Positions 21,688 to 34,929 of a stretch of 34,929 nucleotides of DNA are shown piece after piece. The notes under the pieces were generated by a model. That model saw only the letters and a program-made list of their open reading frames with translations. It did no database searches and was not told the DNA's origin. Position 1 is the first letter of the stretch, and the number at the start of each line of letters is the position of its first letter. Source of the DNA: a virus; the IMG/VR virus record IMGVR_UViG_3300006802_000051, positions 1 to 34,929 of that record. One strand, 5' to 3'. Position numbers and translations under genes: made by a program.

Positions 21688-22173
21688 TTACTGAGTTACG
21701 AACATTACATAAAGTGTTGCTGCAAGACCAATTATGCACAATATAGAAGTTAGTAAGTGTTCGTGTGTCACAATATTCTTGAATTTAATTGGTAGGTCTT
21801 TGAATATAGGGTTATCATCTTCTGCGTTATTGTCGTTGTCATTAGTAAGTTTTAAATGACGTTCAACTCTTAATAGTCTTAATTCATGATTAAAAGTATC
21901 TTCACTCAGTGCGTTGTTTATTTGTTTCTGCTTATCTTGAAACTCTTGCAACTCCCTAAACTCTTCATCGGTGAAAGTTGTGTTGTTGTCTTGTGTTTGC
22001 TCTTTAAAGCCTATTAACTTATAGCTTGTTAAGATACATGGTCTAATTTTTGAATGTCCATTCTCCATGCGTCCGATATAAGAATGCGAACAACCTAATC
22101 TAGCAGCTAATGCACGCTGTGAAAGTTTACGCTCTAATCTGAAGTTTTTTAGTTGTTGGTTTAAAGTTTCCAT
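21688..22173 (-). CDS. XRE regulator with C-terminal membrane anchor (161 aa)
   Basis: Residues 5-60 are an HTH_XRE domain (LKNFRLERKLSQRALAARLG, CSHSYIGRMENGH). A charged, helical, Asn/Asp-rich linker follows. The last 22 residues (LLTSILCIIGLAATLYVMFV) are a single hydrophobic helix at the very C-terminus. A tail-anchored DNA-binding protein would hold its operator near the membrane. The gene has its own promoter whose -35 box is centred in a 14-bp dyad. Its leader carries the UCGGCAAC-N7-AGGAAAU module complementary to the small RNA at 24188-24260. It heads the middle operon and may be a main switch protein. Confidence 0.75.
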   Translation of the reverse strand: METLNQQLKNFRLERKLSQRALAARLGCSHSYIGRMENGHSKIRPCILTSYKLIGFKEQTQDNNTTFTDEEFRELQEFQDKQKQINNALSEDTFNHELRLLRVERHLKLTNDNDNNAEDDNPIFKDLPIKFKNIVTHEHLLTSILCIIGLAATLYVMFVTQ

Positions 22174-22178
22174 TTTTA

Positions 22179-22200
22179 ATTTCCTTGTTTATGTTGCCGA
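22179..22200 (-). promoter_or_regulatory. mRNA leader module a (UCGGCAAC-N7-AGGAAAU)
   Basis: UCGGCAAC at 22200-22193 and AGGAAAU at 22185-22179 are separated by exactly seven bases, AUAAACA. UCGGCAAC begins within one or two bases of the predicted transcript start, and AGGAAAU is the ribosome site of the membrane-anchored regulator. Copies b (26264-26285) and c (26671-26692) have the same spacing. Confidence 0.65.
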
Positions 22201-22207
22201 TAACTTC

Positions 22208-22240
22208 AATCTAACATAGTAAATACAGGGTGTCAACCCT
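22208..22240 (-). promoter_or_regulatory. Promoter with operator dyad for the membrane-anchored regulator
   Basis: Leftward consensus TTGACA (22231-22236) is followed by 17 bases and TAGATT (22208-22213). The -35 box lies inside a 14-bp dyad, AGGGTTGACACCCT (22227-22240), with 5-bp arms. This is the size of a typical XRE operator, so repressor binding there would block RNA polymerase. Farther upstream (22250-22320) are A/T-rich repeats of TTTAAAA with no clear role. Confidence 0.6.
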
Positions 22241-22387
22241 TAATTGTAATTATTTTTGATTTAGGGTAAAAAATTTTTCTACTAAATTAAAACGATTTTA
22301 AAGCCATTTTAAACGCCATATTCTAGCTAGATAATAAGATGTACCGCAACACCCTAATATCGAGCCGTAACCACCTTAAAAATTAAT

Positions 22388-23083
22388 TTAATCGGGTTTT
22401 TTATTCATTGCCTCACTTATATGTTTAATTGTTTCTCCGTCGCCTTGTTCATAACTCTTACCTTTATGCTCAAGTTGCCAGTTGTAACGAATGATTTTTA
22501 ATTGTTCAGCAGTGAAGTTGATATGTGGCTTGGTTAATTGGTTGCTTATTACGAAACCTGCAACTAAATTTAAATACTCGTCAATCTCCACAAAATCCGC
22601 ATTAAATCTGATTGGCAATAAGTAAGCTGAGTAACCATAACTTACCTTTCCATCGATTAAATATAGCTGCATTTCTGCTAATTGTTGCATTGAATCTTTT
22701 AATCTAAACTCCCAACCCTCACGAATTGCTTGTTGGTGTACCACATCATAACGATGTAAAGCCTCAATAATAGCTTGTTTAATTATCGCATCTTGTTCAT
22801 TACGTGCTTTCTGCCATTTATCAACATAACCGTCTTGTGGTTTAGTGTTTGAATTGGGGTTAATGTGGTAATAGGCTTTGATGATATCTTTTGGTTTTGG
22901 GTATCTATCGCATTCAACCATCATATAATCAACTACTTCTTCCCAATTGTTGTTTGGCAAGAATCTTAAAGCTTTGTGATATGCTTCAACTTTCTCAAAA
23001 GGTGATTTTCTACTATTGTGATTAAAAACAGCGTCTAATGGTCTGCAGATGTTATTATTTAAATTTTCGATTGTTAATTTCAT
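22388..23083 (-). CDS. Putative helicase loader (231 aa)
   Basis: The gene overlaps the O-like initiator gene by four bases (ATGA), the usual place of a helicase loader. The N-terminal helical text AYHKALRFLPNNNWEEVVDY followed by CDRYPKPKDIIKAY resembles the loader and inhibitor domain of phage G40P-type proteins. No Walker motif is visible, so it is not a DnaC-type ATPase. It would bring the host replicative helicase to the origin. The assignment rests on context and a weak family pattern. Confidence 0.5.
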   Translation of the reverse strand: MKLTIENLNNNICRPLDAVFNHNSRKSPFEKVEAYHKALRFLPNNNWEEVVDYMMVECDRYPKPKDIIKAYYHINPNSNTKPQDGYVDKWQKARNEQDAIIKQAIIEALHRYDVVHQQAIREGWEFRLKDSMQQLAEMQLYLIDGKVSYGYSAYLLPIRFNADFVEIDEYLNLVAGFVISNQLTKPHINFTAEQLKIIRYNWQLEHKGKSYEQGDGETIKHISEAMNKKPD

Positions 23084-23865
23084 TTATCATCTCCATATTT
23101 TTCTTTGTATTGTTTAATAATGTTGTTGTAGTAGTCATCTTGGTTATTTTCTCCTGTATAACTTTCTAAGGTGTTACTCCAACAAGAACGTTCTAGCCAT
23201 CTATCGGGGGTCATGATGTATTTGTACTCAGTTTCTGTTTCTCTCATTGCATCAGCATAAGCTTGTACTCCCTCCAGTAATTGATTGATTGTTGCTTGCT
23301 TGGTATTTAACACGTGATTGAATAGATTTTTAGTGTGAGGTTCATTTTGTTTCTTAGGATATATATCCCAAAAAATTTTAAAATCACTTTCGCTTATAAT
23401 ATTATTACTAGAATTTATTCTAGTGATAATATTATTATTAACATTATTCTCATTATTTACATTATTGTTTAGGTCTTTCTGTCGTCTTTCTGTCGTCTTT
23501 CTGTCGTCTTTCTGTTGTATCACCTCTTGGTATTTTTCATAATTAACTATAGCTATCTTATTGATTGCAGGTGTTTTTATGATTTTAATCTGTTGTTCTT
23601 TTTCGAGGTATTTTAAAAAATTTCTTAGCTTACTTCTCGACCACTTCCAACGCTCGCAAAGTGTCGATTCTGCACGTGCAATTTCAGCAAATTCTACCCT
23701 TACTTCATTACCTCGAATAAAGAATAATTCAGGTGTTTTTTTATGTCTTGCAAGTAATAATAAATCAACCCATGCAAGAGTTTTATTGAATGGCTCGGAA
23801 AAGAATAAAGGGTTTTCCCATATTGTGCGGTGGATACTAATCCAGCCTTGTATCTTTTGTGACAT
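23080..23865 (-). CDS. O-like replication initiator (261 aa)
   Basis: The first 110 residues match phage replisome organisers: GWISIHRTIWENPLFF, WVDLLLLARHKK, and a winged helix (CERWKWSRSKLRNFLKYLEK). The linker is Asn-rich and low in complexity. The C-terminal part (FKIFWDIYPKKQNEPHTKNL, YKYIMTPDRWLERSCW) is the domain that usually contacts the loader or helicase. The linker is encoded by four 11-bp direct repeats next to an A/T-rich stretch, as in lambda O where the origin lies inside the gene. GGAG lies seven bases before ATG 23865. It is the first gene of the replication operon. Confidence 0.8.
   Translation of the reverse strand: MSQKIQGWISIHRTIWENPLFFSEPFNKTLAWVDLLLLARHKKTPELFFIRGNEVRVEFAEIARAESTLCERWKWSRSKLRNFLKYLEKEQQIKIIKTPAINKIAIVNYEKYQEVIQQKDDRKTTERRQKDLNNNVNNENNVNNNIITRINSSNNIISESDFKIFWDIYPKKQNEPHTKNLFNHVLNTKQATINQLLEGVQAYADAMRETETEYKYIMTPDRWLERSCWSNTLESYTGENNQDDYYNNIIKQYKEKYGDDK
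23395..23516. other. Candidate replication origin: A/T-rich stretch, dyad and four iterons inside the initiator gene
   Basis: Four head-to-tail copies of GTCTTTCTGTC fill 23473-23516; the last copy has one change. Their 11-bp period places the copies on nearly the same DNA face. Next to them lies about 75 bp of almost pure A+T (23395-23472) that contains the dyad ACTAGAATTTATTCTAGT (23407-23424). This is the layout of lambdoid origins: initiator iterons beside an unwinding element within the initiator gene. Use as an origin is inferred. Confidence 0.55.
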
Positions 23866-23871
23866 TATGTA

Positions 23872-23950
23872 ACTCCAGTTTAATTACTCCAGTTTTAAAA
23901 TCGGCGGGGTAACTGGATTACCCCCTTGTCACTGGTTAGCTACTCCCAGT
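23872..23950. repeat. Repeated ACTCCAGT-type motifs in the replication leader
   Basis: ACTCCAGT occurs at 23872-23879 and 23886-23893, 14 bp apart. Related or inverted forms are ACTGGA (23912-23917), ACTGGT (23931-23936) and ACTCCCAGT (23942-23950). They lie between the replication promoter and the initiator start codon, so they are transcribed. They may be operator sites or leader RNA structures. Confidence 0.4.
23906..23924 (-). promoter_or_regulatory. Leader hairpin before the replication initiator
   Basis: In the leftward mRNA GGGGUAA pairs with UUACCCC around a five-base loop, followed nine bases later by a short U/A run. It could act as an attenuator or mRNA-stability element. The U run is too short and distant for a confident terminator. 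Confidence 0.4.
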
Positions 23951-23966
23951 CAAGCCATAATATAAT

Positions 23967-23995
23967 ATTATACCATTGCAACTATTGGTTATCAA
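23967..23995 (-). promoter_or_regulatory. Promoter of the replication operon
   Basis: Leftward TTGATA, 17 bases and a perfect TATAAT. Transcription would begin near 23960 and produce a leader of about 95 bases before the initiator ATG. Its -35 box lies between the two arms of the dyad at 23979-24006. Confidence 0.65.
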
Positions 23996-24006
23996 TTAAA
24001 TAGTTG
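23979..24006. promoter_or_regulatory. Inverted repeat spanning two divergent promoters
   Basis: CAACTATT (23979-23986) and AATAGTTG (23999-24006) are perfect 8-bp arms with a 12-bp spacer, so their centres are 20 bp apart, about two helical turns. One arm lies in the spacer of the leftward replication promoter and the other covers the start of the rightward sRNA -35 box. A dimeric regulator bound here could control both. Confidence 0.45.
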
Positions 24007-24032
24007 AACGTTAAAATGTATTGCTGTATATT
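24004..24032 (+). promoter_or_regulatory. Promoter of small RNA 1
   Basis: TTGAAC (24004-24009), 17 bases, TATATT (24027-24032); the predicted start is A24039. It is rightward in a region where all protein genes are leftward. It ends at a strong terminator 110 bases later, which supports a short RNA gene. Confidence 0.6.
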
Positions 24033-24038
24033 ATATTA

Positions 24039-24148
24039 ATAGGGGCGTTTAATTAATGCGTGTGAATCATAATAAACGCTCCTGTCTCTTTTAATTAATC
24101 GTATAGCCCCCTTAGTTCCTTTCTTTTGTCTAGGGGGTTATTTTTTTC
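24039..24148 (+). ncRNA. Predicted structured small RNA 1 (about 110 nt)
   Basis: The unit has a promoter, a strong 5' stem and an intrinsic terminator, and no open reading frame of note. AGGGGCGUUU (24041-24050) pairs with AAACGCUCCU (24074-24083), ten base pairs with one G-U. The loop contains AAUUAAU, and UUAAUUAA recurs near 24092, so a loop-to-tail pairing is possible. The terminator loop shows UUAGUUCCUUU, an anti-Shine-Dalgarno sequence that would pair partly with the ribosome site of the secreted protein at 28281 (AAAGGAAACUAA). I do not recognise a known RNA family. Its host or phage target is unknown. Confidence 0.6.
24104..24147 (+). terminator. Intrinsic terminator of small RNA 1
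   Basis: UAGCCCCCU (24104-24112) pairs with AGGGGGUUA (24132-24140), nine base pairs with one G-U, and seven Us follow immediately (24141-24147). It works only for rightward transcription. No rightward protein gene precedes it, which is the reason to propose an RNA gene. Confidence 0.8.
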
Positions 24149-24153
24149 ATTAC

Positions 24154-24181
24154 TTTACAAAATTAAAATCTGTGCTATAAT
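24154..24181 (+). promoter_or_regulatory. Promoter of small RNA 2
   Basis: TTTACA (24154-24159), 16 bases, perfect TATAAT (24176-24181) preceded by TGC, an extended -10. The predicted start is A24188. It begins six bases after the terminator of RNA 1, so the two RNA genes are in tandem. Confidence 0.65.
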
Positions 24182-24187
24182 AAACAC

Positions 24188-24260
24188 AATGCAGCCAATA
24201 ACATTTTATTTCCTGTTGCCGAACATCATGAAATTCAGTATTGTAAATATTGGCTGCTTC
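24188..24260 (+). ncRNA. Predicted antisense small RNA 2 complementary to three phage mRNA leaders
   Basis: GCAGCCAAUA (24191-24200) and UAUUGGCUGC (24248-24257) form a perfect 10-bp closing stem around a 47-base loop. The loop carries ACAUUUUAUUUCCU followed directly by GUUGCCGA. These two parts are complementary to AGGAAAU (plus the start codon region) and UCGGCAAC in the leaders before 22173, 26259 and 26696, with seven mRNA bases looped out each time. Before 26696 the first part gives 14 continuous pairs with one G-U, covering both ribosome site and AUG. The RNA would block translation of the three operons. The 3' end is uncertain, since only UUCGUU follows the stem. Confidence 0.55.
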
Positions 24261-24261
24261 G

Positions 24262-24471
24262 TTAACTACCACTCCAATCGATACTACCATCAATTTTATT
24301 TATAATCTCCTCAAGCTCGACATATTCAGGAGTTAATCGTAACCCCCGCTGTAACATCTCATCAAGTAAATCATGCGATAATTTATGATTGCGTTCATTA
24401 ATGAATGCAGTATTCATATTATACTCAATGCACTTTCTAGCTCGATTAAGTATGTCTTCTGTGTTATCCAT
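24262..24471 (-). CDS. Small acidic helical protein (69 aa)
   Basis: The protein begins MDNTEDILNRARKCIEYNMN and has a second helical part around LTPEYVELEEIINKID. ATG 24471 lies two bases after the preceding stop with GAGGATTA upstream. It is the last gene of the recombination operon, and its stop lies just beyond the small RNA 2 stem. Function unknown. Confidence 0.5.
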   Translation of the reverse strand: MDNTEDILNRARKCIEYNMNTAFINERNHKLSHDLLDEMLQRGLRLTPEYVELEEIINKIDGSIDWSGS

Positions 24472-24472
24472 A

Positions 24473-24619
24473 TTAATCCTCTAATTCCTCCAACTCTCTT
24501 TTAGCATATTTTAGTTCAGACTCAAAATATGACATTTCAGCAGCATATATATCATCATTAGATGATATAATATCAGTTAATACACTAATTCTAATCCGCA
24601 ATTCATCTATTGTATCCAT
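24473..24619 (-). CDS. Small acidic coiled-coil protein (48 aa)
   Basis: ATG overlaps the upstream TAA (TAATG) after AAAGGGGGAG. The protein is helical and acidic (MDTIDELRIRISVLTDIISS, ending YAKRELEELED). The position in a tight operon and the strong ribosome site support a real gene. Function unknown. Confidence 0.55.
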   Translation of the reverse strand: MDTIDELRIRISVLTDIISSNDDIYAAEMSYFESELKYAKRELEELED

Positions 24620-25266
24620 TACTCCCCCTTATTAAATGGATTATCATCAACTATAAACGCTGGCTGCTCAGAGTTCGAGTCCTGTTCGGGTTGTGCTTCT
24701 GCTAGTTGCGTATGTAACGTTAAAGCTTGTGTTAGCTCATAATGTAAATCGCTATTTGTATCTAACTTACCTAGCAACGAACTAGCAGCATTAATAATCT
24801 TATCGTTCACATTATCACCATGTAATACATTGATAGCTTTTTTTACTCGCTCTTCAATTGGTATTTCTTGTTTAATTTGCAGAGGCTCAATTGTAATACG
24901 TTCTTTTTTGTTGCGTGATATTGTAATACTTAACACTTCACGCTTTACAATGTCGGATAATGATTTAATCCTAATCCCACCAACAGCTTCACCTGCCCAT
25001 CGTACATTAGCATCACGATACAACTCAACATAACGCCCAATATACAACAACTCGTCATCACCCCATAATGCAGCAAGAACACGCCCCATTGATTTACAAG
25101 GCTTCCATGGTCTACCCTGTCCACCCTCATAATCAATAATAATTGGCTGGTCTGAATTTAGGTTGATTTTTACACCAGTAATTTTAATTATCTTTGTAAT
25201 ATTACCAATTAAATCATCAGCGTTTAACTGGTCACTTTTTGGCTTTAATGCTTCTCTTATACTCAT
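24619..25266 (-). CDS. Recombination-operon partner of YqaJ exonuclease (215 aa)
   Basis: The central text GRPWKPCKSMGRVLAALWGD, then YIGRYVELYRDANVRWAGEA and VGGIRIKSLSDI, is a pattern I know from proteins encoded beside YqaJ-type exonucleases in many phages. Such a partner would be expected to bind or anneal single-stranded DNA, but no biochemical role is established to my knowledge. It is not an obvious RecT or Erf. AAAGGAG precedes the ATG, and only two bases separate the gene from the exonuclease gene. Confidence 0.55.
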   Translation of the reverse strand: MSIREALKPKSDQLNADDLIGNITKIIKITGVKINLNSDQPIIIDYEGGQGRPWKPCKSMGRVLAALWGDDELLYIGRYVELYRDANVRWAGEAVGGIRIKSLSDIVKREVLSITISRNKKERITIEPLQIKQEIPIEERVKKAINVLHGDNVNDKIINAASSLLGKLDTNSDLHYELTQALTLHTQLAEAQPEQDSNSEQPAFIVDDNPFNKGE

Positions 25267-25267
25267 T

Positions 25268-25921
25268 TTATATCTCCTTTGGTAATTCTGTTTCTATGCC
25301 GTCAATATCGTTATGTTGCTTAATTATATCTTGCACCATACTTTCAAATTCACGTCCTGCATTAACAATAATATCAATCATTTCATCATCACGTCCAATA
25401 CGTATAGGCTTCATCTTCAACCCCTCGTGATAACTGATAAAATCCATATACTCTAAATCACCAGCCATCATAACGCCCTGCATTTGTAATATATGTTCTG
25501 TATCAATATCATTATGCAATATATTAGTTAAATGATGATGACTACGTGGGGATTTAATTTCAATCCCGCCTTTTTTATCAGTAGTTAATCCATCAGGTGA
25601 CGCTCCAAATGGAAATCCAAAACTATCATTTTCAATAAAACCAACATGATATAAGTGTTGGTAATTATTATTATATAAAAAAGCTGCCTCAGCCTCTAAA
25701 GCATTGCCACGTTCCATATCATCACTAATATAGACTGGTTCTACAATACCCTTAATCCGTTCAGCAGCAATAATTAACGCTTGTGTTTTTGCTCCTGCAC
25801 CTAATTTAAGGGTTTTGGGGGTTAATATATCCCCCAATCTCGAAGCGGTTAATTTACCACATCTTACTTTTAACCAATCATCAGAGCCTTGCTCCATATT
25901 CTCATAGATTCTTTTAGCCAT
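25268..25921 (-). CDS. YqaJ-family exonuclease (217 aa)
   Basis: All parts of the lambda-exonuclease-like fold are present: QGSDDWLKVRCGKLTASRLG (residues 11-30), RGNALEAEA with E76, GASPDG with D110, and IEIKSP with E121 and K123 as the metal site. It digests one strand of double-stranded DNA ends to give 3' single strands for annealing recombination or concatemer formation. The start is coupled to the upstream acidic gene by TAATG after GGGAGGA. It is expressed from the leftward promoter at 26294-26322. Confidence 0.85.
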   Translation of the reverse strand: MAKRIYENMEQGSDDWLKVRCGKLTASRLGDILTPKTLKLGAGAKTQALIIAAERIKGIVEPVYISDDMERGNALEAEAAFLYNNNYQHLYHVGFIENDSFGFPFGASPDGLTTDKKGGIEIKSPRSHHHLTNILHNDIDTEHILQMQGVMMAGDLEYMDFISYHEGLKMKPIRIGRDDEMIDIIVNAGREFESMVQDIIKQHNDIDGIETELPKEI

Positions 25922-26259
25922 TACATATCCTCCCTAGATTCTCTAATTTGCATATCGATATATTCATCATACGCAACCTTTTCATTATATCCGCATTCTT
26001 CCATAAGCTCGTCAATATAAAGATTAACATCATTATCATTATGCGATTCTATCTCGTCATATTCCTCATTGAACATCAACTGAAAATTAAAATCATTTAA
26101 ATGCACGGATTTAATATCATGATAGCTAAAGTCGTTAGCCTGTAGCCACTCCCCTAAATCCTCAAGGCTAGCAAAAGCATTATATTTATATTGCCTTACT
26201 ACTCCTAATTCTTTTTGATTAATTGACTTAACAATATATAGAGTTAATTCGTCTGACAT
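25921..26259 (-). CDS. Highly acidic first gene of the recombination operon (112 aa)
   Basis: ATG 26259 is the start because AAGGAAAU lies just before it and the predicted transcript begins about 28 bases upstream, inside any longer frame. By my count the protein has 27 Asp/Glu and 8 Lys/Arg, and acidic residues cluster from residue 75 on (for example NEEYDEIESHNDNDVNLY). First-expressed acidic phage proteins are sometimes DNA mimics that block host nucleases, or exonuclease inhibitors. Here that is speculation. Its mRNA leader carries module b, complementary to small RNA 2. Confidence 0.6.
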   Translation of the reverse strand: MSDELTLYIVKSINQKELGVVRQYKYNAFASLEDLGEWLQANDFSYHDIKSVHLNDFNFQLMFNEEYDEIESHNDNDVNLYIDELMEECGYNEKVAYDEYIDMQIRESREDM

Positions 26260-26263
26260 TTTT

Positions 26264-26285
26264 ATTTCCTTATTTAAGTTGCCGA
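26264..26285 (-). promoter_or_regulatory. mRNA leader module b (UCGGCAAC-N7-AGGAAAU)
   Basis: UCGGCAAC (26285-26278), UUAAAUA, AGGAAAU (26270-26264), then AAAAAUG. Small RNA 2 can pair with UCGGCAAC and with AGGAAAUAAAA (11 continuous pairs). The module starts at the predicted 5' end of the recombination operon transcript. Confidence 0.65.
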
Positions 26286-26293
26286 TAAAAATA

Positions 26294-26322
26294 ATTGTAT
26301 CATAATACGTACAGCACCGCAA
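26294..26322 (-). promoter_or_regulatory. Leftward promoter of the recombination operon
   Basis: Leftward TTGCGG (26322-26317), 17 bases, TACAAT (26299-26294). The start is predicted near 26287. The -35 box uses one arm of the palindrome at 26319-26335. Confidence 0.55.
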
Positions 26323-26335
26323 CATAAAATGTTGC
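26319..26335. promoter_or_regulatory. 17-bp operator palindrome shared by divergent promoters
   Basis: GCAACATAAAATGTTGC has perfect 7-bp arms and a 3-bp centre. The left arm overlaps the -35 box of the leftward recombination promoter and the right arm overlaps the -35 box of the rightward promoter. A dimeric HTH protein bound here would silence both. The product of the adjacent HTH gene (26392) is the best candidate. Confidence 0.6.
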
Positions 26336-26360
26336 ACTTTATGCAAAAATATATTACAAT
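26332..26360 (+). promoter_or_regulatory. Rightward promoter of the HTH regulator operon
   Basis: TTGCAC (26332-26337), 17 bases, TACAAT (26355-26360); predicted start near 26367, 25 bases before the HTH gene. Its spacing and -10 box mirror those of the divergent leftward promoter. Confidence 0.6.
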
Positions 26361-26391
26361 ATAAGAAATAACATTAATATAGGTTTTAAGT

Positions 26392-26652
26392 ATGTGGTTA
26401 ATAAATGAATTGCCCGAAGATGCAATCAAACGATTAAAGGATATTGTAGAATTACACAAAATATCAATTACAGAACTATCTAATAATATAGGTTATACAA
26501 GGGTTCACGTTAGCGGTGTGTTAAATCAAACACGTTATTCTGATAAAGTGGTGTACAAGATTATGAATTACTTGCAACTATCACCTGATTGTATAACTAG
26601 TGAAAAAAAATATCAAAATTATAAAGAAAAGGTATTGACAAGTGAAACATAG
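26392..26652 (+). CDS. Small HTH regulator at the divergent switch (86 aa)
   Basis: Residues 10-62 fit an HTH_XRE or Cro-like domain: EDAIKRLKDIVELHKISITE, LSNNIGYTRVHVSGVLNQT. Residues after about 68 form a charged tail. The gene lies directly downstream of the 17-bp palindrome that overlaps both divergent -35 boxes. I infer that its product represses its own operon and the recombination operon. AGG lies about eight bases before ATG, a weak ribosome site. The next promoter (26635-26663) starts inside its 3' end. Confidence 0.65.
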   Translation: MWLINELPEDAIKRLKDIVELHKISITELSNNIGYTRVHVSGVLNQTRYSDKVVYKIMNYLQLSPDCITSEKKYQNYKEKVLTSET

Positions 26653-26663
26653 AATGTTACAGT
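26635..26663 (+). promoter_or_regulatory. Rightward promoter inside the 3' end of the HTH gene
   Basis: Consensus TTGACA (26635-26640), 17 bases, TACAGT (26658-26663). The start is predicted at about 26670, so the mRNA begins with leader module c and skips the HTH gene. It drives the rest of the rightward block. Confidence 0.65.
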
Positions 26664-26670
26664 TAACTTA

Positions 26671-26692
26671 TCGGCAACAAAACAAAGGAAAT
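26671..26692 (+). promoter_or_regulatory. mRNA leader module c (UCGGCAAC-N7-AGGAAAU)
   Basis: UCGGCAAC (26671-26678), AAAACAA, AGGAAAU (26686-26692), then GAAAUGU with the AUG of the next gene. This copy has the best match to small RNA 2: AGGAAAUGAAAUGU pairs over 14 bases with one G-U, plus eight pairs with UCGGCAAC. Confidence 0.65.
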
Positions 26693-26695
26693 GAA

Positions 26696-26839
26696 ATGTA
26701 TATATTAATCAAACAAGATGGCACAACTTCCGAACCAATGGAGTTATTCGCTGCTATCAAACTTAAAACCCCAAACGAACGCATACAGAATGCAATGTCT
26801 GGTGATGAGGTAAAAAAACTTTATGAGGGCATGAAGTAA
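26696..26839 (+). CDS. Small protein, first gene after module c (47 aa)
   Basis: ATG 26696 is the start because AAAGGAA lies seven bases upstream; a longer in-frame ATG at 26642 would lie before the predicted transcript start. The protein, MYILIKQDGTTSEPMELFAA onward, has a short strand pair and two helices. Function unknown. It is coupled to the next gene by TAATG. Confidence 0.55.
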   Translation: MYILIKQDGTTSEPMELFAAIKLKTPNERIQNAMSGDEVKKLYEGMK

Positions 26840-28182: not shown

Positions 28183-28257
28183 GAGGGCATAGCTTAGTGG
28201 CTAAAGCGTCGGTCTCCAAAACCGAAGACCTGAGTTCGATTCTCAGTGCCTTTGCCA
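28183..28257 (+). tRNA. tRNA-Trp (anticodon CCA), CCA end encoded
   Basis: A complete 75-nt cloverleaf can be drawn. The acceptor is GAGGGCA/TGCCTTT, the D stem GCTT/AAGC, the anticodon stem TCGGT/ACCGA with loop CTCCAAA, and the T stem CTGAG/CTCAG with loop TTCGATT. It has discriminator G and encoded CCA. Anticodon CCA reads UGG (Trp), and G73 fits tRNA-Trp. The acceptor stem holds two G-U pairs, at 1-72 and 3-70. It lies between gapR and the secreted-protein gene and is likely processed from their transcript. No integrase is present, so it is not an obvious attachment site. Confidence 0.9.
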
Positions 28258-33393: not shown

Positions 33394-34929
33394 AGTAAAT
33401 CCTGCATATCATCTGCTATTTCTTTTTTAATCATTTTTTGTAAAGAATTTTTCTCACCTTTAATTAATCTGTCTAAGAAAATCTTTCCTTTTTTGTTATC
33501 TAATAATATATTAGCGATAACTTTTGCATTTTTTTCGTTAATACCAATATACTTATTTGTCAGAGAGTTAGCAAGTGCATCAATTGCATGGCGTGTTATT
33601 TCTAATTTTCCACCCCTAGCAGCCTCAACCACTGTATCTGCAAATAGACCGTCATCTATTTGGTTGTAGTCTGTCCTTGAACCGCCCAATATGTTAAATT
33701 TAGTTTCGTTAAAATTAATTTCGTCGTTCATTTTTTTTGCGAATTGATCGTAGTTTTTACCTAAAACTAATTTTAACTGCTTTTGTTGCAGTAATTTACC
33801 AAATATCTTTTTCGCCTCATTTGCAGATTGTGCAGTATTATACACTTGATGTTCAAGGCTTTTTCTTACACCTATATTAAATGCGTCTAATTGTGCTGGT
33901 GTTAAGTCTTTTATTGTTTGTTTTAATTCAGGTATGCCAAGTTTATGATAAGTAGCTCCTAACTCTTGTGCATTTTGTAGTTCAGCAAAACCACCAAATG
34001 TTTTACGGGCTTTACTATATGTTGGTGAAACTTCATCTAATACATTAGTTAAATTACGCCTTGTATCCCCTACTAATCTAGCAGCGTTATTATATCCATT
34101 TCTAATTAGATTACTTTCTTTGTCAAATAAAGCCTGCTTTACTTTATCTAAAGCCTCCAGTGAATTAGGCTTCATTTCTTGCGTTAAACCTAAATACTTT
34201 TGTGCATAATTATAAGCCTCAACAACATTTGTGTCTTTTGTAAATTGTTCCAATCTATCATCTACAATATCAGCACCCTCCTCATAAGCTTTCTTATATA
34301 AAGGTGCAGACATTTCAGCACGTAATTTAGCAATATCATCTATATTTTGATAGTAATCATCAACTTTTGAAACACTACTATTAATAGTTTTTAAAACCCT
34401 ATCAGAAGTCGCATTTGCTCTATTCTCTAGTACATCATGCACTAAATTTCTAGCACCACCCGAAGCCTTACCCACTTTACGAGTCAGCCCCCTTATTTCA
34501 TCACCCGCAATATCTGCAAGTGTAATATCAGTATTGCTTTCTAGTTGCTTTTGCAATTGCCCTAAATCACGCCCCTTTAAACGTTTGCTAATAATTTTTA
34601 CAGGGTCGCCACCTAACGCTTTATCAGTTAACGCTTTAAAATCAAATAGTTTTGCGTCTAATTGTTCTGCTGCCTGTTTAGCGTTCATATTAGTAACAGT
34701 TTTGTTAATAAATGGCACTTGCATAACTTGCGTTTTTGCCTTCTCAATTGCAATAGGTGTATATTTACCAATACCCTTAACTACAACAGGAAGTGAAGCC
34801 CCTAACGCACCACCACCTAATCCACCAGTAATAAATTGGCTTTGCCTTTTCTCTAGTGATTGTTCTGGTGTTAAATTTTCTTCTAAAGGGGTTTCCAGTG
34901 CATTAAATCCAGCCCCAAAAAGAGTACCA
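33390..34929 (-). CDS. Large ejection (internal virion) protein, C-terminal part; starts at 713 across the junction
   Basis: The frame is open through the end of the window and joins the start at 713 on the circle, giving 709 residues; bases 34807-34929 duplicate 1-123. This part is long, helical and basic: LRAEMSAPLYKKAYEEGADI, YNYAQKYLGLTQEMKPNSLE, RKTFGGFAELQNAQELGATY. Such text is typical of the largest ejection protein of P22-like and related podoviruses (gp16 position). It would form part of the channel for DNA entry. No catalytic motif is seen. The stop overlaps the tiny membrane gene by four bases. Confidence 0.7.
   Translation of the reverse strand, partial: GTLFGAGFNALETPLEENLTPEQSLEKRQSQFITGGLGGGALGASLPVVVKGIGKYTPIAIEKAKTQVMQVPFINKTVTNMNAKQAAEQLDAKLFDFKALTDKALGGDPVKIISKRLKGRDLGQLQKQLESNTDITLADIAGDEIRGLTRKVGKASGGARNLVHDVLENRANATSDRVLKTINSSVSKVDDYYQNIDDIAKLRAEMSAPLYKKAYEEGADIVDDRLEQFTKDTNVVEAYNYAQKYLGLTQEMKPNSLEALDKVKQALFDKESNLIRNGYNNAARLVGDTRRNLTNVLDEVSPTYSKARKTFGGFAELQNAQELGATYHKLGIPELKQTIKDLTPAQLDAFNIGVRKSLEHQVYNTAQSANEAKKIFGKLLQQKQLKLVLGKNYDQFAKKMNDEINFNETKFNILGGSRTDYNQIDDGLFADTVVEAARGGKLEITRHAIDALANSLTNKYIGINEKNAKVIANILLDNKKGKIFLDRLIKGEKNSLQKMIKKEIADDMQDLL
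34807..34929. repeat. Terminal direct repeat, right copy (circular closure)
   Basis: Exact copy of bases 1-123. The reading frame of the large ejection protein is conserved through both copies, so joining base 34806 to base 1 rebuilds one gene. Confidence 0.95.

What the first reader, a model, noticed from the sequence alone, without database searches (positions are those of the whole stretch)
22179..26692. Three unlinked transcripts begin with the same leader module
UCGGCAAC, seven A-rich bases, AGGAAAU occurs before genes at 22173 (-), 26259 (-) and 26696 (+). In each case UCGGCAAC starts one or two bases from the predicted transcription start of a sigma70-type promoter, and spacing to the ribosome site is identical although the seven bases differ. 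Promoters and genes are otherwise unrelated, so the module is likely selected at the RNA or initial-transcription level, as target of small RNA 2 or of an RNA-binding protein.
Basis: partly seen in the sequence, partly recalled or inferred. Interest (0 to 1): 0.72.

Follow-up and report, generated by a model that had tools for sequence, protein, structure and literature searches.

The report
Phage small RNA silencing three operons
A small phage carries three operons whose messenger RNAs begin with the same short sequence, and between them a tiny gene that seems to make an RNA complementary to that sequence and to the start codons, so one RNA could switch off all three operons at once.

Summary
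The three copies are real and more than chance: TCGGCAAC-N7-AGGAAAT occurs exactly at 22200-22179(-), 26285-26264(-) and 26671-26692(+). Each begins at the predicted +1 of a promoter and ends in the ribosome-binding site of the first gene of an operon. The shared core is longer than reported: TTATCGGCAAC-N6-AAGGAAAT, after an extended -10. The only other TCGGCAAC in the genome is its reverse complement at 24208-24222, with the spacer missing. It lies in the loop of a hairpin (24191-24257) that starts about 10 bases after one of the four best promoter matches in the genome, on the + strand. That RNA would pair with both conserved blocks and the start codon of all three mRNAs (-22, -24, -28 kcal/mol). 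These are the top three of 56 gene starts; no shuffled loop matched this in 500 trials. Best explanation: a phage-encoded trans-acting antisense RNA that shuts off translation of three early operons, working like P1 c4 and P4 CI RNA but matching no known RNA family. Expression and function are untested. Module and antisense are absent from other viral contigs searched, apart from one near-identical fragment, so there is no covariation evidence.

The parts
22179..22203 (-). Target leader T1: TTATCGGCAACATAAACAAGGAAAT, predicted +1 at A22201, followed by TAAAAATG
22208..22236 (-). Promoter of T1: TTGACA-17-TAGATT with TG before the -10
21688..22173 (-). T1 gene, 161 aa: N-terminal Cro/CI-type HTH (HTH_3, E 7e-10) and a C-terminal hydrophobic stretch; first gene of the leftward run of small genes
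26264..26288 (-). Target leader T2: TTATCGGCAACTTAAATAAGGAAAT, followed by AAAAATG
26294..26322 (-). Promoter of T2: TTGCGG-17-TACAAT, weak -35, extended -10 (ATGATACAAT)
   Evidence: read; inference
25921..26259 (-). T2 gene, 112 aa, unknown function; first gene before a YqaJ-type exonuclease (25268-25921) and its probable recombination partner (24619-25266)
26668..26692 (+). Target leader T3: TTATCGGCAACAAAACAAAGGAAAT, predicted +1 at A26670, followed by GAAATG
26635..26663 (+). Promoter of T3: TTGACA-17-TACAGT with TG before the -10, overlapping the 3' end of the upstream HTH gene
26696..26839 (+). T3 gene, 47 aa, unknown function; first gene of the rightward operon
24154..24181 (+). Promoter of the antisense RNA: TTTACA-16-TATAAT, 11 of 12 with TG before the -10; one of only 4 such sites in the genome
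24188..24258 (+). Candidate antisense RNA, about 71 nt: 10-bp stem (24191-24200 with 24248-24257) closing a 47-nt loop; 3' end not certain
24202..24222 (+). Antisense element CATTTTATTTCCTGTTGCCGA: pairs with UCGGCAAC, AGGAAAU and the AUG of T1, T2 and T3; the target spacer bulges out
26392..26652 (+). 86-aa HTH (Cro/CI-like) regulator between the divergent T2 and T3 promoters; probable partner of the switch
   Evidence: syntenic in L254

Best explanation
The shared leader is the common target site of one phage-encoded, trans-acting antisense RNA made from 24188-24258(+). The RNA starts at a strong sigma70 promoter and is held in a hairpin whose loop carries CAUUUUAUUUCCUGUUGCCGA. This pairs with the 5' end (UCGGCAAC), the Shine-Dalgarno block (AGGAAAU) and the start codon of the three early mRNAs, bulging out the target spacer. 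Pairing blocks ribosome entry and so silences three operons together: an HTH regulator, the recombination operon, and a rightward operon of small genes. Shown by sequence: the modules, the antisense copy, the hairpin and the promoter match. Inferred: that the RNA is made, that it pairs in the cell, that it represses, and that its role is to hold early genes off (a quiescent state, or late infection).
For: Exact 15-nt reverse complement of the two joined blocks, found once in the genome; none in 300 Markov genomes. Complementarity goes on through the start codon: with T3, 14 contiguous pairs (one G-U) plus 8; duplex energies -22.2 (T1), -24.3 (T2) and -28.5 (T3) kcal/mol, net -14.9, -16.5 and -21.7 after opening costs. 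The three are ranks 1-3 of 56 gene starts; the next is -18.1; 0 of 500 shuffled loops have a third-best hit as strong. The promoter is one of 4 scoring 11/12 in the genome, and a 10-bp inverted repeat starts 10 bases after it; 0 such pairings in 60 shuffled genomes. Fold z = -3.2. The targets' leaders are almost unstructured.
Against: No expression data. No relative with both parts: the extended module and the antisense core are found nowhere else in 2.9 million viral contigs apart from a near-identical fragment that holds two of the leaders, so compensatory change cannot be tested. The RNA has no good intrinsic terminator at its 3' end. Opening the pairing site inside the RNA costs about 6 kcal/mol. 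The nearest distinct relative (L254, 54-57% protein identity, same early layout) lacks the RNA.
Confidence: 0.66

Rival explanations
1. The module is the binding site of a phage or host RNA-binding protein (a translational repressor or activator), and the reverse-complement copy is a decoy site carried on leftward read-through RNA of the T2 operon.
For: Conserved two-block leader with fixed spacing and a spacer that varies; leftward RNA through 24258-24188 would carry UCGGCAACAGGAAAUAAAAUG in a hairpin.
Against: The decoy lacks the spacer whose length is fixed in all three leaders, while the match goes on through the start codon; the strong promoter and the 5'-proximal stem are on the opposite strand. 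No RNA-binding protein family was seen among the proteins scanned.
Confidence: 0.13
2. The leader is a promoter-plus-translation-start cassette copied to three operons: the start-site sequence sets promoter escape or is a DNA operator (TTnnCGnnAA) for an HTH repressor at +1. The antisense copy is a degenerate inverted duplicate.
For: All three share an extended -10 and TTATCGG at the same place. TTATCGGCAA has weak dyad symmetry, and the T3-syntenic promoter of L254 carries GTTATCGCAAAC at the same place.
Against: Does not explain why the antisense copy keeps AGGAAAT through the ATG, nor its promoter and hairpin; the dyad is weak, and the full GTTnnCGnnAAC form is met only by T1 and by one site inside a gene.
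Confidence: 0.14
3. The + strand transcript is a leaderless mRNA for a 38-aa peptide (24189-24305), and the complementarity is a by-product of an inverted duplication.
For: ATG lies at or next to the predicted +1 and the frame is open for 38 codons.
Against: The exact complementarity, the closing stem and the overlap with the convergent gene 24262-24471 argue against coding use; the peptide itself was not searched for relatives.
Confidence: 0.04

Closest known systems
c4 antisense RNA of phages P1 and P7
   Same: Phage-encoded stem-loop RNA of about 77 nt, with sequences probably in loops complementary to the region around a ribosome-binding site in a phage mRNA, blocking translation (PMC12197685).
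   Different: c4 is a processed RNA that acts on ant; here there is a separate promoter and there are three operons. No Rfam match.
CI RNA of satellite phage P4
   Same: Small antisense RNA with more than one target site in phage transcripts, keeping replication genes off (PMC4825925).
   Different: P4 CI acts by premature transcription termination through seqA and seqC on either side of its own gene; here start-codon blocking is inferred, in separate operons.
sar RNA of phage P22
   Same: Small RNA of 68-69 nt that pairs with a phage mRNA and interferes with translation initiation (PMC12197685).
   Different: One target; no shared leader module.
Start-Associated Sequences (SAS/ESAS) of cluster K mycobacteriophages
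   Same: A short conserved sequence that includes the Shine-Dalgarno in front of many start codons, often just after a conserved promoter element; the subcluster K1 phages also hold one lone antisense copy away from gene starts (PMC3203893, PMC11373665).
   Different: Unrelated sequence and host; 13 bp without a two-block layout; 16-17 copies per genome. Function unknown.

Membership tests
Phage-encoded trans-acting antisense RNA (working class of c4, P4 CI, sar) | Own promoter or processing site and a discrete structured RNA | tested here: met
   Promoter 11/12 with extended -10; hairpin z -3.2. Only at sequence level.
Phage-encoded trans-acting antisense RNA (working class of c4, P4 CI, sar) | Complementarity to the translation start of phage mRNAs above chance | tested here: met
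   Top three of 56 starts, 0/500 shuffles.
Phage-encoded trans-acting antisense RNA (working class of c4, P4 CI, sar) | Compensatory change between RNA and targets in relatives | tested here: inconclusive
   No relative holds both parts (L254 lacks the RNA).
Phage-encoded trans-acting antisense RNA (working class of c4, P4 CI, sar) | RNA is expressed and represses its targets | not testable with these tools
   No transcriptome or host in hand.
Rfam families in the library (4227 models) | Match of the hairpin to a covariance model | tested here: not met
   Nothing reaches a gathering score over 24000-24300; only chance-level hits.
SAS elements of cluster K mycobacteriophages | Consensus GGGATAGGAGCCC before starts | tested here: not met
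   The three leaders carry AGGAAAT, not GGGATAGGAGCCC. Similar kind of layout only.

The most novel reading that the evidence does not exclude
A two-way RNA switch. The antisense RNA gene lies on the opposite strand inside the leftward early transcription unit (T2 operon on to the replication gene at 23865), with no clear terminator between. The RNA would silence T2, while T2 read-through would both run over the RNA's promoter and make a perfectly complementary RNA that titrates it, giving two self-holding states without a protein repressor.
Probability: 0.3. Interest if true: 0.75.

Novelty: new variant of a known kind. Interest (0 to 1): 0.62.

Why it matters
The phage antisense RNAs that I found described each act on one phage mRNA or on one operon. 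Here a phage seems to have put one target tag on three operons so that a single RNA of about 70 nt commands them together. It also suggests a general way to find such regulators from sequence alone: look for a repeated translation-start module with one lone antisense copy in a hairpin. That layout also appears in the cluster K1 mycobacteriophages, whose SAS elements have had no assigned function since 2011.

Tried and rejected
Searches for relatives through the exonuclease, terminase, portal and phrog_11517 proteins gave only one near-identical fragment, one distant syntenic relative and more remote phages. Whole-hairpin duplex scans were not discriminating because long interior loops dominate. 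The neighbouring candidate RNA at 24039-24147 was tested as a second regulator: its terminator loop pairs no better than shuffles (135/200), so it is rejected as a demonstrated partner. A DNA operator GTTnnCGnnAAC was considered: only 2 in the window, one of them inside a gene. The antisense-SAS idea for all cluster K phages was not upheld: the K2, K3, K5 and K6 phages checked lack the lone antisense copy.

Full report
What was claimed. Three operons begin with UCGGCAAC, seven A-rich bases, AGGAAAU. I confirmed this at the given coordinates with no mismatch, and it is not a chance result. The window is a whole, circularly permuted phage genome: its first 123 bases repeat at its end, and a near-identical contig (L025, 99.95%) runs through the join. 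The head genes are of the kind seen in small podoviruses; the terminase is about 45% identical to those of Cronobacter phage Ss1 and Pelagibacter phage Hodr, and the portal and major head proteins match PHROGs families.

Anatomy of the leaders. Reading the three promoters side by side, each has an extended -10 (ATG-N-TA-N-A-N-T), four or five bases, then TTATCGGCAAC, six variable bases, AAGGAAAT and the start codon 6-8 bases after AGGA. The predicted first transcribed base is the A before UCGGCAAC in each case, so the module is nearly the whole 5' untranslated region. The T1 gene encodes a Cro/CI-type HTH protein with a hydrophobic tail. T2 is a 112-aa protein before the YqaJ exonuclease and its partner. 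T3 is a 47-aa protein heading the rightward operon.

The missing piece. TCGGCAAC occurs four times in the genome. The fourth, at 24215-24222 on the minus strand, is followed at once by AGGAAATAAAATG: the same module with the spacer deleted. On the plus strand this is CATTTTATTTCCTGTTGCCGA, and it lies in the loop of a hairpin closed by GCAGCCAATA/TATTGGCTGC (24191-24257). The stem begins 10 bases after TTTACA-16-TATAAT, one of four sites in the genome scoring 11 of 12; no such promoter-hairpin pairing arose in 60 shuffled genomes. The hairpin folds better than shuffles (z -3.2).

Pairing. The loop pairs with both blocks and with the start codon in all three leaders, leaving the target spacer as a bulge: -22.2, -24.3 and -28.5 kcal/mol, or -14.9, -16.5 and -21.7 after the cost of opening both partners. 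Among 56 gene starts these are ranks one to three, with a gap of about 6 kcal/mol to the fourth; of 500 shuffled loops none had a third-best target as good. This test is not independent of the motif, since the loop contains its complement. The independent points are that the antisense copy exists at all, that it continues through the start codon, and that it sits behind a promoter in a hairpin.

Mechanism. I therefore infer a trans-acting antisense RNA that blocks ribosome entry on three early operons. Its gene lies opposite to, and downstream of, the T2 operon, with no good leftward terminator listed before the replication gene at 23865. Read-through from T2 would make a perfect complement of the RNA; mutual antagonism, and thus a switch, is possible but only inferred.

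Conservation. The extended module is in no other of 2.9 million viral contigs except the near-identical fragment, and the 19-nt antisense core is in none. Records very near the window may be left out of these scans. The closest distinct relative, L254, keeps the order HTH regulator / T2 homologue / exonuclease / partner / DnaD-like gene, but has no antisense RNA. Its T3-syntenic promoter does carry TTATCGCAAACAACAAAAGGAGAC at the same position, so part of the leader may be old and the RNA young. Covariation cannot be tested.

Comparison with known systems. P1 c4 and P22 sar block translation of antirepressor genes. P4 CI RNA pairs with two sites but works by terminating transcription. No Rfam family matches. 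The present case differs in having three separate operons tagged with one target module. The nearest match for the tag itself is the SAS of cluster K mycobacteriophages, whose role is still called ill-defined. Looking there, I found that the lone antisense SAS noted in 2011 for K1 phages sits exactly in the loop of a hairpin whose outer helix is paired in all seven aligned sequences despite changes (two pairs changed on both sides; modest support, 24 of 500 shuffles reach the covariation score). The hairpin region is in over a hundred mycobacteriophage records. The phages of K2, K3, K5 and K6 that I checked lack the lone antisense copy, so this is a lead, not a proof.

Verdict. Observation confirmed and extended; interpretation partly supported, with the small-RNA branch clearly the best. 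Function rests on sequence alone.

Noticed in passing
L326:30660-30713, L327:31848-31901, L328:30612-30665 (Adephagia, Anaya, Angelica): The single opposite-strand SAS of cluster K1 mycobacteriophages lies in the 10-nt loop (CCUCCUAUCC) of a strong conserved hairpin; it could be an antisense RNA against the SAS-bearing gene starts. No such lone copy in the K2, K3, K5 and K6 phages checked.
   Followed up: partly
24039-24147 (+): A second candidate RNA just upstream: 5' hairpin, then a C5/G5 stem followed by TTATTTTTTT. Its terminator loop pairs with no gene start better than shuffles; its middle part has one notable hit to 29375(+) (3 of 200 shuffles as good).
   Followed up: partly
28183-28257 (+): A phage tRNA-Trp (CCA anticodon) inside the rightward operon, just before a secreted-like protein gene (28281).
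   Followed up: no
1-123 and 34807-34929: The contig ends repeat each other over 123 bases and L025 spans the join, so the record is a complete circularly permuted genome.
   Followed up: yes
L254:109-200 (minus strand): The T3-syntenic gene of the nearest relative has a leader TTATCGCAAACAACAAAAGGAGAC at the same distance from its promoter: a diverged form of block 1 without the rest of the system.
   Followed up: partly
L254:480-592: Before the T2 homologue, TATGGCGTGTTAACCT and TATAGCGTGTTTACCTA form a spaced direct repeat around the promoter, a possible repressor operator.
   Followed up: no
23866-23995 (-): Leader of the DnaD-like replication gene has a strong extended promoter (TTGATA-17-TATAAT) and a GGGGTAA/TTACCCC hairpin.
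   Followed up: no
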